DNA of 64,000 bases from Mesorhizobium sp. L2C084A000 (GTDB taxonomy: Bacteria; Pseudomonadota; Alphaproteobacteria; Rhizobiales; Rhizobiaceae), in NCBI RefSeq assembly GCF_000502875.1, contig NZ_AYWX01000001.1, positions 166,527 to 230,526 of the forward strand, read 5' to 3'. The notes beneath the pieces are model-generated. The model ran no database searches. It saw only the letters and a program-made list of their open reading frames with translations, and was not told the DNA's origin. The position numbers were made by a program, and so were the translations under genes. Below are positions 12,966-49,890 of this stretch, one piece after another. Within the stretch, counting starts at the first letter, position 1; each line of letters opens with the position of its first letter.

Positions 12966-13355
12966 ATGAGAAAAGCTGGAATCGTAACCGGGGCAGGCCT
13001 TCTGCTGGCGTCACTGCTTGGCGTCGTCGCGGCTCACGCCGACGACATGCTGGGATCCTATGTCGCGCGCATTTCCGATCGCGACCATCAGGCGAGTGAC
13101 GGCTATGCGCTGGACAATGCCGCGCAGATGGTGCGGCAGGACCGCGCCAACTGGCACAAATTCCACCGCCGTGACAGCGACGACGAGGGTGATGGCTGGT
13201 TCAGGACCAACGGCCAGCGCGCCGACCTGCAACGCATGCTGGAACGCGGCGGCGCGATGAGTTCCTCGACCAAGCGCGCCATCGTCAATGGCGAACCGCT
13301 GATCCAGGTCGATGTCTACGAAAACAGCGTGCGCGTCAGCATTCTCGAGAACTGA
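12966..13355 (+). CDS. Small periplasmic hypothetical protein
   Basis: A 129-residue protein. A clear signal peptide (RKAGIVTGAGLLLASLLGVV, cleavage after AHA) leads to a mature chain of about 105 residues rich in Asp, Arg and Asn (MLGSYVARISDRDHQASDGY, HKFHRRDSDDEGDGW, NGEPLIQVDVYENSVRVSIL). A strong ribosome-binding site (AAGGGGGGA) precedes the ATG. I recognise no family. A rho-independent-type hairpin follows at 13410-13433. Confidence 0.75.
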   Translation: MRKAGIVTGAGLLLASLLGVVAAHADDMLGSYVARISDRDHQASDGYALDNAAQMVRQDRANWHKFHRRDSDDEGDGWFRTNGQRADLQRMLERGGAMSSSTKRAIVNGEPLIQVDVYENSVRVSILEN

Positions 13356-13409
13356 CCGGGCCGTCGCCCGGGGCGGCTGACAGTCGGCTTCGGGGACGAC
13401 TGACAGGAA

Positions 13410-13433
13410 AAGGCGGCGCCTCAGCACCGCCTT
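13410..13433 (+). terminator. Hairpin terminator after the small periplasmic protein gene
   Basis: AAGGCGG and CCGCCTT form a 7-bp stem with a 10-base loop about 55 bases after the stop at 13355. It has no long T run, so strength is uncertain. It also faces the end of the minus-strand acidic protein gene at 13463. Confidence 0.45.
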
Positions 13434-13462
13434 GCCATCGATGGAACCGGCGGCTGAAAAAA

Positions 13463-13764
13463 TCAGGCCGCTTTTTCCTTGTCATCGTCTTCTTCGGACT
13501 CGTCGCCTTCAGCCTTCACGCTATCCTCGGCGTCGTCTTCGTCTTCGTCCTCGTCGTCTTCATCTTCGTCGTCATCCGAGAGCGTGGCAGTTTCGGTGGA
13601 CTCTTCGCCATCTTCATCGTCGCCGTCTTCGTCGTCATCAGACAGGTCAGCGGCTTCGACCGCTGCGGCGGCGGCATGATCGAGGATGGTTTCGGAAGCG
13701 GATTCAGCGCCTCGGCGGAAGCCGGGGTTTCTTCTGTCACTTCGATGTCGTGATCGGAATTCAT
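13463..13764 (-). pseudogene. Acidic Asp/Glu-rich small protein with apparent 1-base frameshift
   Basis: The natural start is ATG at 13764, preceded by a strong ACGGAGGC Shine-Dalgarno, giving MNSDHDIEVTEETPASAEA. After about 19 codons that frame loses coding character. The -1 frame immediately becomes ESASETILDHAAAAAVEAAD and then a long acidic tail with repeats of SDDDEDGDDEDGEE to the stop at 13463. Adding one G in the GAGGCGCTGAA segment (near 13707-13712) joins both parts into one protein of about 100 residues. So either the gene carries a real frameshift or the sequence has a one-base error. The tail would be strongly anionic and unstructured; function unknown. Confidence 0.65.
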
Positions 13765-13873
13765 AGAAGCCTCCGTGGGGTTGGGGAACATGTCCCTTTT
13801 GCCACGGAGAGATCATCGCCATATGACTGTAAGCCGGCTCGAACGGCCGGCGGCAAAGAATATTTTCTTCGCC

Positions 13874-16363
13874 TTAACCTGCGATCTTCGAGAAATCCGC
13901 GACCTGGCCGGTGGCCGCGCGGATGCGGGCGAGCAGCGCCAGGCGGTTGGCACGCACCGCCTGATCCTCATCGTTTACAAGAACATGCTCAAAGAATGAA
14001 TCAACCGGTTCGCGCAACACGCTAAGCGCCAGCAAGGCGGCGGAAAAGTCATCGTTTTGAATCGCTTCGCCGGCTTGCTTCTCAGCCTGATTCACCGCCG
14101 CAAACAGCGATTTCTCGGCATCCTCGCGCAAGAGTGCCGACTCAACGGTTTCGGCGACCACCGTTTTCTTCTTCTCCTCGGCGGCCAGAATGTTGGCCGC
14201 ACGCTTGGTGCCGGCGAGCAGGTTCTTGCCATCCTCGGTGTCGAGGAAGGAGCCCAGCGCCTCGACCCGGCGCACGATCTGCAGCAGGTCGTCATTGGAC
14301 GATTGGCCAATCTCCCCCCTTGTGGGGGAGATGCCCGGCAGGGCAGAGGGGGGTACTTGGCGCTGAGAGGACGGCGGGACAGCGCCCCCCTCTGTCGGCT
14401 TCGCCGACATCTCCCCCTCTAGGGGGGAGATCGGGCGCGAACCTGTCGCCAGCACCGCATCGATCAGGTCGTGCCGAGCGCCTTGATCGCGGAGGTAGAC
14501 CTTTAGGCGATCGTGGAAGAAGGCCAGCAGGTCGCGATCCCCAGACTTTCCGTCGCCGGCGTGCGCCCGTGCACTCACATAGTCGCCACCCAACTTGGCC
14601 TGCTCTTCAGCGTGCCGGCGGTCGATCTGGTCTTCAATGATTCTTCGATGTTCAGCTACGATCGAAAGAAGGCTTACCGGCGTCTCGTTATCCAGCACCA
14701 GCCTCACCACCCCAAGAGCAGCTCTGCGCAGTGCGTAGGGATCCTTCGACCCGGTCGGCTTTTCATCGATCGCCCAGAAGCCGACCAGCGTATCGAGCTT
14801 GTCGGCGAGCGCGACAGCGACCGACACTGGATCGCTCGGTACGCGATCGGACGGGCCCTGCGGCTTGTAGTGTTCCTCCGCTGCAGCGGCGACCGATGCA
14901 TGCTCGCCCTGAAGCAGCGCATATTTGCGACCCATAGCGCCTTGCAGTTCCGGAAACTCGCCAACGACTTCGGTGGTGAGATCGGCCTTCGCCAGGACGG
15001 CAGCGCGCCGCGCCAGTGCCGGATCGGCGCCGATGATCGGCGCCAGTTCCTCGGCAAGCCGCGCAATCCGCTCCACCCGTTCGCCTTGCGTGCCGAGCTT
15101 GGCGTGGAAAGTCACGCCGAGATGGTCGAGGCGGGCCATGCGCTGGTCGAGCGGCTTCTTGAGATCAAGCCCGAATTTTTCCGCCGATGCCTCGAGCTCA
15201 CGCAGGTCAGGCAAATCGCCCTGGTCGGTCGTCCAGAAATAGAGCGCGTCGGACAGGCGGGCGCGCACCACCTTGCCGTTACCGTGGGCGATCTCCTTGC
15301 CGCCGTCCTTCGCCTCGATATTGGCGGTTAGGATGAAGCGGTTGGAAAGTTGGCTGATCTCCCCCCTTGAGGGGGAGATGGCCGGCAGGCCAGAGGGGCG
15401 CGCCTCACGCCGAGAGGACGGCGGGACAGCGCCCCCCTCTGTCGGCTTCGCCGACATCTCCCCCTCCAGGGAGGAGATCGGGCGCGATGTCACAAAGCAC
15501 TTCTGGTTGGCGCGGATGGTCAGTCGGATCACCTCGGCCGGAATGGCGAGGAATGCCTCCTCGAACTCGCCCATCAGCACGACCGGCCATTCGACCAGCC
15601 CGGACACTTCCTCCAGCAGCCCTTCGTCCTCAACCAGATCAAGCCCGTTGGCGAAGGCGAGATTGCGGGCGTCGGCAAGGATGATCTCCTTGCGCCGATC
15701 AGCATCGAGCACGACCTTGGCCGCTTCCAGCTTGGAAACATAGTCGTCGAAGCGGCGTACCGTGATGGCGTCAGGCGCATGAAAACGGTGGCCATAGGTG
15801 ATGTTGCCGGAGCGGATACCGTCGATCTCGAAATCGACCACGACAGGCTCCTCTGTTTCCGGGCCGAAGGTGCACAGGATCGATTGCAGCGGCCGTACCC
15901 AGCGCAGTGAACCGGGCTTGGCCGAGGCCGGCCCCCAGCGCATCGATTTCGGCCACGGAAAATTGCGGATGATGCCCGGCACCAGTTCGGCGATGATCTC
16001 CTCCGCCGCCCTGCCCGGCTTCGAAATGTGGGCGACATAAAAATCGCCTTTCTTCGGATCGGAATGGACATGCGCCTCGGCGATCGAGGAAAGTCCGGCC
16101 TTGCGCAGGAAACCCTGGACCGCCTGTTCAGGCGCCGATGTCGAAGGCCCCTTGATCTCTTCGCTTATATCCTTCGAGCGCGCGGTCAGGCCCCTGATGT
16201 CGAGGGTCTGCCGCCGCGGCGTCCAGTACTCGCGCGCCGCCTCATAGGTCAGTCCCGCCTCGACCAAACCGTCGGTCAGCATCTTCCTGAGATCACCCGC
16301 CGCCTTGCGCTGCATGCGCGCAGGGATTTCCTCGGAGCGAAGTTCTAGAAGCAGGTCAGGCAT
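13874..16363 (-). CDS. glyS: Glycyl-tRNA synthetase beta subunit, with two palindromic-element inserts
   Basis: GlyS is the tRNA-binding beta chain of the alpha2-beta2 glycyl-tRNA synthetase. Family sequence runs throughout: [17 protein letters not shown] at the start, [37 protein letters not shown], then [16 protein letters not shown] and the DALRP-like anticodon-binding end. At 829 residues it is about 90 longer than I expect. The excess is two in-frame inserts: residues about 292-336 ([18 protein letters not shown]... to ...SPSRGEISQ) and about 642-685 ([18 protein letters not shown]... to ...SPTRGEIGQ). Both are encoded by the repeat element described separately and fall in loops between conserved blocks. 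ATG at 16363 matches the family N-terminus. glyQ lies upstream on the same strand. Confidence 0.96.
14307..14438. repeat. Palindromic repeat element inside glyS (copy B)
   Basis: About 132 bases built as an inverted pair. The left arm has the hairpin AATCTCCCCC-CTTGTG-GGGGAGAT followed by CCGGCAGGGCAGAGGGGGG. The right arm has CCCCCCTCTGTCGGCTTCG, the mini-hairpin GTCGGCTTCGCCGAC, and CATCTCCCCCTCTAGGGGGGAGAT. It is a multiple of three and open in the glyS frame, so it is translated as an approximately 44-residue insert. It is closely similar to copy A at 15355-15486 and related to intergenic copies elsewhere in the window. Confidence 0.85.
15355..15486. repeat. Palindromic repeat element inside glyS (copy A)
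   Basis: This copy has the same architecture and length as the element at 14307-14438: GATCTCCCCCCTTGAGGGGG, then GCCGGCAGGCCAGAGGGG, a central variable part with GAGAGGACGGCGGGACAGC, then CCCCCCTCTGTCGGCTTCG and CTCCCCCTCCAGGGAGGAGA. The central segment GAGAGGACGGCGGGACAGCG is identical in the two copies. The reading frame through it is open and used by glyS. Confidence 0.85.
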
Positions 16364-16558
16364 CGGGGTCAGCTCATGCGGGAGAGTGGTCCGGGCGGGG
16401 CATAGCAACTCGGCTGGCTGCTGTCACCCTTTACACAAATTTTGACCGCCCTGTCGGGACGAGACCACGCCACCCGTCCTTGGATCAAAGATTTCCATGA
16501 ACCGAACGCAGCGCTGAAGCGACCCACGCTCAGGCAGGGAACATTTGGCTCAACGATC

Positions 16559-16735
16559 ATGAAAACGGCATCCAGACTTCTGCAGATCCTCGCACTCGGC
16601 GCCTGCTTCACGGCGCAGGCTCACGGCGCCTTCTCGATGCCGGGCGTGCGGCAGGCATTGCGCACCATCGACGGTGCCGGCGGTCAGGCCGTACCGCCGA
16701 TCAACGGTTCCCTCGAGATGATGAAGCGGGCCTGA
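16559..16735 (+). CDS. Possible small secreted peptide
   Basis: A 58-residue frame, MKTASRLLQILALGACFTAQ then HGAFSMPGV, with a plausible signal peptide (positive N-terminus, hydrophobic core, AxA-like site at AQA-HGA). The mature part is about 35 residues. The only purine-rich upstream site (AGGGAA) is about 16 bases away, which is too far, so translation is uncertain. It lies alone between the convergent ends and starts of glyS and glyQ on the opposite strand. Confidence 0.45.
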   Translation: MKTASRLLQILALGACFTAQAHGAFSMPGVRQALRTIDGAGGQAVPPINGSLEMMKRA

Positions 16736-16738
16736 AGC

Positions 16739-17683
16739 TCAGGCCGCCAAGCCACCCGCCTGCGTCTTCAGAAACGCTTCGCCGCAAGCCTTGGCCAGAT
16801 TGCGCACCCGCAGGATATAGCTCTGCCGCTCAGTGACCGAAATCACGCCGCGTGCGTCGAGCAGGTTGAAGACATGGCTGGCCTTGATGCACTGATCGTA
16901 GGCCGGGAAAACCATGCGGTGCATCGGCAGATTGTCGTTGGACGCCGGCGCGCCGGCGTCGAGCAGCGCCTTGCACTCGGCCTCGGCATCCTCGAAGTGG
17001 CGCAAAAGCATCGCCGTGTCGGCGTATTCGAAATTGTGGCGCGAATATTCCTGCTCGGCCTGCAGGAAGACATCGCCATAGGTGACCTTGTCGGTGCCTT
17101 CGCGGCCGTTGAAATTGAGGTCGTAGACATTGTCGACGCCCTGCACATACATGGCCAGCCGCTCCAACCCGTAGGTCAGCTCGCCGGCCACCGGCGCGCA
17201 TTCGATGCCGCAGACCTGCTGGAAGTAGGTGAACTGCGAGACTTCCATGCCGTCGCACCAGCATTCCCAGCCGAGACCCCAGGCGCCCAGCGTCGGACTT
17301 TCCCAATCGTCCTCGACGAAGCGGATGTCGTGCAGCAGCGGATCGACGCCGATCGCCGCCAGCGAGCCGAGATAGAGTTCCTGCAAATTGGGCGGGTTCG
17401 GCTTCAGGATCACCTGGTACTGGTAATAATGCTGCAGCCGGTTCGGGTTCTCGCCATAGCGGCCATCCTTGGGACGACGCGAGGGTTGGACATAGGCAGC
17501 GTTCCAGCGTTTTGGGCCGAGCGCGCGCAGCGTTGTTGCCGGATGAAAGGTGCCTGCACCGACTTCCATGTCGTAGGGCTGCAGGATAACGCAGCCATAG
17601 GCTGCCCAATAGTTGTGCAAGGCCAGGATCAGCCCCTGGAACGAGCGGCTGGGATGCATATGGGCGGGGATTTCAATTGTCAC
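16739..17683 (-). CDS. glyQ: Glycyl-tRNA synthetase alpha subunit
   Basis: GlyQ is the catalytic alpha chain that activates glycine. Diagnostic sequence: [60 protein letters not shown] and [20 protein letters not shown]. At 314 residues it has normal length. GTG at 17683 has GAGG six bases upstream and gives the N-terminus [14 protein letters not shown]; a further GTG at 17701 is possible. glyS follows on the same strand about 375 bases later, with a small plus-strand frame between them, so the pair may be transcribed separately. Confidence 0.97.
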
Positions 17684-17877
17684 GGGTGGCCTCGACAGCA
17701 CAGGCTAGCTTGCCGGCACGTCCTAGAGACCCGGCAGCAAAGCGTCAAGCAAAGCACGCCGATGCGGTCGCGCCGACATTATGGACAATGTTGAAAGCTT
17801 TGCAGAGGCTGGCCCATTGCCCATCTCTCGGGCCTGCGCTCTGTTCGCCTGTGCAGCAACGACAACAGGTTTCAGCC

Positions 17878-40706: not shown

Positions 40707-40763
40707 GATCTCCCTGCTTGCGGGGGAGATGGCCGGCAGGCCAGAGGGGAGTGCTGTCCCGCC
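40707..40763 (+). repeat. Palindromic repeat, intergenic half-element 2
   Basis: GATCTCCCTGCTTGCGGGGG, AGATGGCCGGCAGGCCAGAG and GGGAGTGCTGTCCCGCC form the inverted partner of the arm at 40590-40643. It lies downstream of the LysR gene and ends just after the der stop region. Confidence 0.75.
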
Positions 40764-40814
40764 AACGTTGCGGAGAATTCCCGCGAGCAAAGGGGCTCAT
40801 TCGAGCCCGACCGC

Positions 40815-49741: not shown

Positions 49742-49775
49742 AGGGCGCCCACAATCTGTAAGGTCGGCGATTGGC

Positions 49776-49833
49776 CAATCTCCCCCCTTGCGGGGGAGAT
49801 GCCCGGCAGGGCAGAGGGGGGTGCTGTCCCGCC
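49776..49833 (+). repeat. Palindromic repeat, intergenic half-element 3
   Basis: CAATCTCCCCCCTTGCGGGG, GAGATGCCCGGCAGGGCAGA and GGGGGGTGCTGTCCCGCC form an arm of the glyS-type repeat, 35 bases after the DUF488 gene. Its inverted partner is at 49891-49943. Confidence 0.8.
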
Positions 49834-49890
49834 GACCTGTCAGCCAATCACCGGCCAAATTCTGAGACGAACAGTCAAAGGGTGGCGATC

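What the first reader, a model, noticed from the sequence alone, without database searches (positions are those of the whole stretch)
14307..15486. Two palindromic repeat elements translated inside GlyS
The sequence shows two about 132-bp elements of the same inverted architecture at 14307-14438 and 15355-15486. Both are multiples of three and open in the glyS frame, so GlyS gains two roughly 44-residue inserts ([19 protein letters not shown]...SP.RGEI). Both fall between conserved blocks, likely surface loops: one after QKCFVTS and before [11 protein letters not shown], the other after LIDAVLA and before [13 protein letters not shown]. This resembles the Rickettsia palindromic elements that insert in coding genes, here in an essential enzyme of a rhizobium. 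It is a possible case of selfish DNA that survives by encoding a tolerated peptide.
Basis: partly seen in the sequence, partly recalled or inferred. Interest (0 to 1): 0.8.

Follow-up and report, generated by a model that had tools for sequence, protein, structure and literature searches.

The report
Selfish palindromes inside glycyl-tRNA synthetase loops
Short palindromic DNA repeats sit in frame inside an essential tRNA-charging enzyme of soil bacteria, and the same three loops of that enzyme are occupied, patchily and in many species, by several kinds of such repeats, so one gene records how selfish DNA can survive inside working proteins.

Summary
Confirmed. glyS (window 13874-16363, minus strand, 829 aa) carries two in-frame 123-bp palindromic elements (14309-14431, 15356-15478), each an inverted pair of two-hairpin units. 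Across the genus (Mesorhizobium by matching contigs) they are patchy: intact GlyS runs from 703 to 935 aa, and the element was seen at three positions only (A, B, D), each at a loop in a good AlphaFold2 model of insert-free GlyS. Site A shows no phylogenetic clustering (13 filled, 12 changes); B and D do. Other genera hold other repeat types at the same loops, at least one with no DNA match to this family. The arms lie in one reading frame in 95 of 96 inserts picked by DNA alone. A hairpin pair covaries inside the coding DNA (peptides SAKP, SPKA, STKS). Similar copies sit in the same frame in an E2 acyltransferase and a HyuAB-like oxoprolinase; 19 of 102 copies have their nearest relative at another site or gene. 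It works like Rickettsia palindromic elements but membership was not tested. What moves it is unknown: no RAYT was found in this genome. Exchange of glyS alleles between species is the main rival, strongest at D. New variant of a known kind.

The parts
13874..16363 (-). glyS, glycine-tRNA ligase beta subunit, 829 aa plus stop, with two in-frame palindromic elements
   Evidence: translation; Pfam PF02092 E 1.3e-169; PDB GlyRS-beta chains 7yse, 7eiv
15356..15478 (-). element at site A (residues 296-336, [41 protein letters not shown]); flanking SRP and SQ stand where empty alleles have RPQGxxxx
14309..14431 (-). element at site D (residues 645-685, [41 protein letters not shown]); with flanking RP and GQS 14300-14437
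14552..14656 (-). site C, hypervariable segment (residues 570-604), not the palindromic element
16739..17701 (-). neighbouring ORF that looks like glyQ (GlyRS alpha subunit); name recalled, not searched
   Evidence: ORF list

Best explanation
The inserts are copies of a non-autonomous palindromic element: two inverted ~50-nt units, each with two hairpins, around a variable spacer. Copies spread between loci, including between unrelated coding genes. In coding genes they last where they stand in frame, in the frame that gives a Pro/Gly/Glu/Ser-rich peptide (ISPLxGEM...GISPxRGEI), and in loops that can take ~40-50 extra residues. GlyRS-beta offers three such loops (A, B, D), which have been filled, partly deleted and sometimes filled in the other orientation, and which in other genera hold other repeat types. 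SHOWN: position, frame, patchiness, both orientations at B (read from the peptides), other repeat types at the same loops, hairpin covariation in coding DNA, closely similar copies in different genes. INFERRED: movement by copying of the element rather than only by exchange of alleles; tolerance and disorder of the peptide; a full-length protein. UNKNOWN: the enzyme that moves it.
For: Occupancy at three positions in the genus. Site A: 13 filled of 129 (10 full and 1 short copy of this element, 2 of other types), 12 changes on the core tree, shuffle mean 12.5-12.6; trees of 50 flanking codons give 11-12 changes. G110 and G082 carry the site-B element in the other orientation; their nearest relatives are copies at A (84%) and D (94%) of other genomes. 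Other genera: other repeat types at A, B, D, 45 of 54 such inserts fold at z <= -3, and 15 of 15 in Mesorhizobium. Frame: of 96 inserts picked by DNA arms alone, 95 have all arms in the ISP frame; one mosaic has one arm out; in 66 elements tested the next forward frame is open in 54. Covariation: pair 28-34 is GC 27, CG 8, AU 5, GU/UG 2, broken 3; score 0.087 against 0.037 +/- 0.005 shuffled. 19 of 102 distinct copies have their nearest neighbour at another site or gene, e.g. G134 glyS-A to G000 glyS-D 96.7%, an E2 copy to the glyS-D copy of G098 98.4%. Loops in an AF2 model, mean pLDDT 86.9.
Against: B and D carry phylogenetic signal (20 changes against 36.8 shuffled; 16 against 33.7), and at D a tree of the flanking codons needs only 12 changes, fewer than the core tree's 16, so filled alleles partly travel with their flanks (local and core trees were built by different methods). 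Junction codons are alike within a site. No target-site duplication and no mobiliser found (looked only for PF01797 in this genome). The repeat types in other genera are not all unrelated: three of four groups share short DNA stretches (<= 57 nt) and some inserts are mosaics. At D and in one B set third codon positions diverge about twice as fast as first and second, so weak protein-level constraint is not excluded. High cross-gene identity is partly due to constrained arms.
Confidence: 0.68

Rival explanations
1. One old insertion per loop, later moved between species as glyS alleles by homologous recombination, with loss by import of empty alleles; little or no continuing mobility.
For: Filled alleles of one site share junction codons. 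Phylogenetic signal at B and D, and fewer changes on the flank tree than on the core tree at D (12 against 16). Short in-frame remnants show decay in place.
Against: At A 50-codon flanks do not group filled alleles, and at B flank trees need more changes (24-25) than the core tree (20). Other repeat types sit at the same loops. Opposite orientations at B. Nearest relatives at another site or gene in 19 of 102 copies.
Confidence: 0.24
2. The loops are functional appendices kept by selection (protein function, or an mRNA hairpin that tunes glyS expression); repeats were co-opted.
For: Arms are almost invariant even at synonymous sites; hairpin pairs covary; some excess of third-position change at D.
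Against: Most scored species lack each insert. The spacer varies at all codon positions. Alike elements sit in unrelated enzymes; arms would also be alike after recent spread.
Confidence: 0.06
3. Artefact: assembly error, or a segment removed from mRNA or protein before function.
For: Six GlyS reads are frame-broken: G047, G097 and G052 inside an element (poly-G run or N stretches), G023 inside an element and once more outside, G084 at a residual junction at D, G100 at or after its site-D element.
Against: The other filled alleles are open in frame in many assemblies, single-contig ones included. No Rfam match in 13000-17000.
Confidence: 0.02

Closest known systems
Rickettsia palindromic elements (RPE) and Wolbachia protein-coding palindromes
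   Same: RPE: 105-146 bp palindromes, in frame in conserved proteins and also between genes; one host enzyme (Gmk) stays active with its insert (PMC2229807 section 9)
   Different: Free-living rhizobia; the same three loops of one enzyme used by several repeat types over many species. RPE and Wolbachia sequences were not compared; the Wolbachia work is known only as a reference and from recall
REP/REPIN and BIME elements; intragenic GTAG/CGTC REPs (PMC3733652)
   Same: Inverted pairs of small palindromic units; intragenic copies reported, among them tRNA synthetases in X. oryzae, E. litoralis and S. alaskensis, and REPs at about the same site of recB in two Xanthomonas (section 15)
   Different: No RAYT (PF01797) in this genome; units are two-hairpin, ~50 nt; no GTAG/CGTC tag test was run; coding inserts of 37-53 residues in many species
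Bacterial MITEs (ERIC, Correia, RUP and others)
   Same: Small non-autonomous inverted-repeat elements, some with open frames (passages of PMC2229807)
   Different: No terminal TA or target duplication shown here; no partner transposase found
Rhizobial and Brucella repeats (RIME, Bru-RS; recalled)
   Same: Palindromic intergenic repeats of the same bacterial order
   Different: Not compared by sequence; known to me as intergenic

Membership tests
Rickettsia palindromic elements (RPE) | About 105-146 bp element with inverted repeats and long stem-loop | tested here: met
   123 bp cores (111-159 bp in the relatives compared), arms 81 and 89% complementary, fold z -7.4 and -6.4 in G000
Rickettsia palindromic elements (RPE) | In frame inside conserved protein genes, and also outside them | tested here: met
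   glyS, E2, HyuAB-like; UvrD-like helicase in G486; 21 of 135 genus matches in frames under 200 aa
Rickettsia palindromic elements (RPE) | Sequence homology to an RPE family | not tested
   No RPE sequence was fetched or compared
Rickettsia palindromic elements (RPE) | Inserted protein is made and active | not testable with these tools
   No expression data
REPIN / RAYT-mobilised REP | Two REP-like palindromic units in inverted orientation | tested here: met
   Inverted pairs of two-hairpin units, inward or outward
REPIN / RAYT-mobilised REP | RAYT (Y1 transposase, PF01797) in the genome | tested here: not met
   0 matches in the own genome; found in 8 of 14 control genomes, 6 over the cut-off
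REPIN / RAYT-mobilised REP | GTAG or CGTC tetranucleotide at the foot of the palindrome | not tested
   No systematic test
MITE | Target-site duplication at empty versus filled sites | tested here: inconclusive
   Filled and empty junctions differ by replacement of several codons, so no duplication could be read

The most novel reading that the evidence does not exclude
A coding-resident class of selfish palindromes: elements whose full-length copies live mainly inside a few conserved proteins, move from gene to gene while keeping one reading frame, and use loops of essential enzymes as refuges. GlyRS-beta loops A, B and D act as a shared landing zone for several repeat types over many genera of the family.
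Probability: 0.28. Interest if true: 0.9.

Novelty: new variant of a known kind. Interest (0 to 1): 0.73.

Why it matters
It carries protein-coding selfish palindromes from obligate intracellular Rickettsiales to free-living, cultivable soil bacteria, with a dense natural experiment: one essential enzyme, three loops, over a hundred species, several repeat types. That makes old questions testable: whether such elements still move, why one frame is kept, how a protein absorbs 40-residue inserts, and whether repeats feed new loops into proteins. It also warns that some assemblies break these genes inside the elements.

Tried and rejected
RAYT partner: PF01797 searched in the own genome, none; no other transposase family was searched. 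Rfam: no match over 13000-17000. First AF2 job on the full 829-aa protein gave a poor model (mean pLDDT 49.8) and is not used. A first sorting of inserts by patterns mislabelled rows and was replaced; only its length-based tally is used. My first frame count (66 of 66) had picked inserts partly by their peptide and so was circular; one search repeats it on DNA alone. My claim that the repeat types are unrelated was tested late and had to be softened. 'All filled alleles are one imported haplotype': not supported at A, partly supported at D. That the E2 host is not the housekeeping PdhC is likely but not settled: a second E2 paralogue of mostly 455-470 aa aligning at about 70% is listed for many of the same genomes (capped list); I did not read whether it has an insert. 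Plasmid search: 165 records, mostly half-element matches; of the 30 listed, none has an annotated feature under the match (some have no annotation); no source of movement.

Literature: searches of the held open-access library; the listings showed no paper on in-frame palindromes in Mesorhizobium or GlyS. PMC3733652: passages and section 15 read; PMC2229807: passages and section 9 read; PMC2635572: passages only. Ogata et al. 2000, 2002, 2005 and Abergel et al. 2006 are known only through those texts and recall (PMC186582 not held).

Full report
OBSERVATION. The minus-strand glyS of the window (13874-16363) encodes 829 aa, a GlyRS beta subunit (PF02092; PDB relatives 7yse, 7eiv). Two 123-bp elements, 15356-15478 and 14309-14431, are read in frame. 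The copies are 88% identical over 146 nt, with arms 81 and 89% complementary. The genome gives 107 DNA matches, mostly half elements, and 150 scored six-frame matches out of 335 candidates at a loose limit. Rfam has no match at 13000-17000.

ANATOMY. The element is an inverted pair of units. Each has a first hairpin (ATCTCCCCC...GGGGGAGAT) and a second (GTCGGC-GAA-GCCGAC, GTCGCC..GGCGAC, GCCCGGCAGGGC and the like) followed by AGAGGGGG; a variable spacer lies between. In this genome 9 places match the GTCGSCGAAGSCGAC-type unit with up to 3 mismatches: 4 lie in glyS (two), an E2 acyltransferase and a HyuAB-like oxoprolinase, in one frame; of the other 5, one lies in an unidentified 251-codon open frame and four in frames of 153 codons or less.

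GENUS-WIDE MAP. glyS was found in 146 of 146 genomes of the genus. I read 137: 8 genomes had no listed coordinates, one (G036) no recognised start. Two are cut by contig ends, four stop early, two (G084, G100) are frame-broken further on. Intact lengths run from 703 to 935 aa. Aligned to an insert-free GlyS (G008, 706 aa), the element peptide is seen at three places only. A (after QKCFVT): of 134 scored, 120 empty, 11 full, 1 short, 2 other types; two frame-broken reads (G047, G023) also carry it. B (after ELAPIV): of 131, 86 empty, 37 full, 3 short, 5 an unrelated-looking variant. D (after DLIDAV): of 132, 92 empty, 28 full, 7 called short (one, G052, is a frame-broken misalignment), 1 and 3 of two other types, 1 other. 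The genus is Mesorhizobium by contig identity: contig lengths of G033, G022, G020 and G068 equal those of M. metallidurans STM 2683, M. loti DSM 2626, M. jarvisii LMG 28313 and Mesorhizobium sp. WSM3862.

HISTORY. On a tree of glyS core codons (129 genomes after dropping 8 broken or cut), site A has 13 filled genomes (2 of other types, 1 remnant) and 12 changes, as many as shuffled labels (12.5-12.6); flank trees give 11-12. B (44 filled, the 5 variants included) has 20 changes against 36.8 shuffled; its flank trees give 24-25. D (39 filled, 5 of them other than this element) has 16 against 33.7; its right-flank tree gives 19, but the tree of both flanks gives 12, fewer than the core tree. So at D filled alleles partly share flanks, which favours allele exchange there. 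At B most copies are in one orientation, but G110 and G082 read as the other, and their nearest relatives are copies at A and D. Short forms such as [15 protein letters not shown] look like internal in-frame deletions. Junction codons are alike within a site.

FRAME. Picked by DNA arms alone, 81 of 81 Mesorhizobium inserts and 14 of 15 in other genera have all arms in the ISP frame; in the remaining one (G688 D, a mosaic) one of two arms is out of it. In 66 elements the +1 frame is open in 54 and +2 in 20, and on the reverse strand 38, 57 and 19. The +1 frame is arginine-rich. The copies are related, so these are not independent events.

STRUCTURE OF THE ELEMENT. In 45 distinct coding units, picked by a pattern that left columns 28 and 34 free, pair 28-34 is GC 27, CG 8, AU 5, GU 1, UG 1, broken 3; the covariation score is 0.087 against 0.037 +/- 0.005 in shuffles and at most 0.015 when slid. 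In the protein this reads as SAKP, SPKA and STKS. Related rows can inflate such scores. Codon-position divergence at D (16 genomes) is 0.057/0.063/0.123 against 0.056/0.039/0.282 in the core; at B 0.115/0.151/0.160 (18 genomes) and 0.082/0.085/0.180 (9). Arms are nearly invariant even at synonymous places and the spacer varies at all positions, so constraint or recent spread acts largely on nucleic acid; the third-position excess in two sets leaves room for some protein-level constraint.

OTHER HOSTS. A genus search with the peptide (E <= 1e-9) matched 91 of 144 genomes at 135 places; 114 lie in open frames of 200 aa or more. Of 26 loci read, 10 are glyS, 13 E2 and 3 HyuAB-like; other rows were placed by frame length only. 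In G000 the E2 insert lies between the lipoyl and E3-binding domains. Among 102 distinct copies (glyS, E2, few HyuAB; intergenic copies not included) 19 have their nearest neighbour at another site or gene. In an order-wide draw 10 of 397 genomes match at E <= 1e-6, three outside the genus: G486 (glyS site D and a UvrD-like helicase), G498 (short frames) and G497 of another family (E2 linker).

OTHER GENERA. From the 297 genomes I chose 30 of 19 genera (most for fragmented glyS matches, G486 and G498 because), so this is not a fair sample. GlyS could be read in 27. A is filled in 22 of 26, B in 17 of 25, D in 19 of 25 scored; 5 at A and 2 at B could not be assigned to a type. Ten of 25 have all three filled by 15 or more residues. 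Of 28 readable GlyS with the best unbroken matches, a set biased to empty sites, A is empty in 28, B and D in 27 each. By DNA the types fall into four groups: ISP; HLLPAGEK with PTPDLRSDP (97 nt, opposite strand); LWGGR with PLEGRVV (150 nt); SRPASPAPQDE. Only the last has no match to any other; the rest share stretches of up to 57 nt, and G688 D, G607 B and G671 D, set aside as mosaic-looking, link types further. 45 of 54 inserts of other genera and 15 of 15 of 8 Mesorhizobium genomes fold at z <= -3; the nine that do not include G554 A, G486 B and all three of G656. Among named records 17 of 73 readable GlyS (of 80) have inserts of 12 or more residues at A, B or D: 8 Mesorhizobium, 4 Rhizobium (tropici, rhizogenes, tubonense, Leaf371), and Aquibium, Tianweitania, Jiella, Fulvimarina, Peteryoungia; the Fulvimarina inserts are not shown to be palindromic (the notebook's '18' is a slip).

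HOST STRUCTURE. An AF2 model of insert-free GlyS (43 sequences, mean pLDDT 86.9) matches solved GlyRS beta chains. Site A lies at the turn between strands 290-294 and 304-309 (its junction at the end of the first strand), B at the turn between helices 388-406 and 410-420, D at the turn between helices 556-562 and 570-584.

CONCLUSION. Movement by copying is the best explanation, allele exchange the main rival and probably part of the story. It works like RPEs; it is not filed as an RPE or as a RAYT-driven REPIN.

Noticed in passing
window 14552-14656 (minus); GlyS reference residues about 523-535: A fourth, hypervariable GlyS segment (site C): about 10-100 residues of very different sequence between species, as a rule not palindromic (mean fold z -0.81, lowest -4.08, over 33). 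Cause unknown; replacement by recombination or diversifying selection are candidates.
   Followed up: partly
L146, L147, L064, L012, L028, L093 (G047, G023, G097, G052, G084, G100): Frame-broken glyS reads, mostly at poly-G runs, N stretches or junctions of an element; likely assembly or sequencing errors at the palindromes, though G023 has a second break elsewhere.
   Followed up: partly
window 40708-40812 and 49771-49843: Two further places in the window with weak six-frame matches to the element peptide (C1:207234-207338 and C1:216297-216369).
   Followed up: no
L247 (G486), minus strand: UvrD-like helicase with an in-frame [15 protein letters not shown]... insert between its N- and C-terminal helicase domains.
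   Followed up: partly
Site B of G015, G032, G035, G037, G073: An alternative segment (LSKQPNFFDGKLLSADDLN... and the like, 21 residues longer) stands in place of empty loop B in five genomes.
   Followed up: no
window 13463-13822 (minus): Small ORF rich in Asp/Glu (119 aa) beside glyS, with repeated TCGTC/TCTTC tracts.
   Followed up: no
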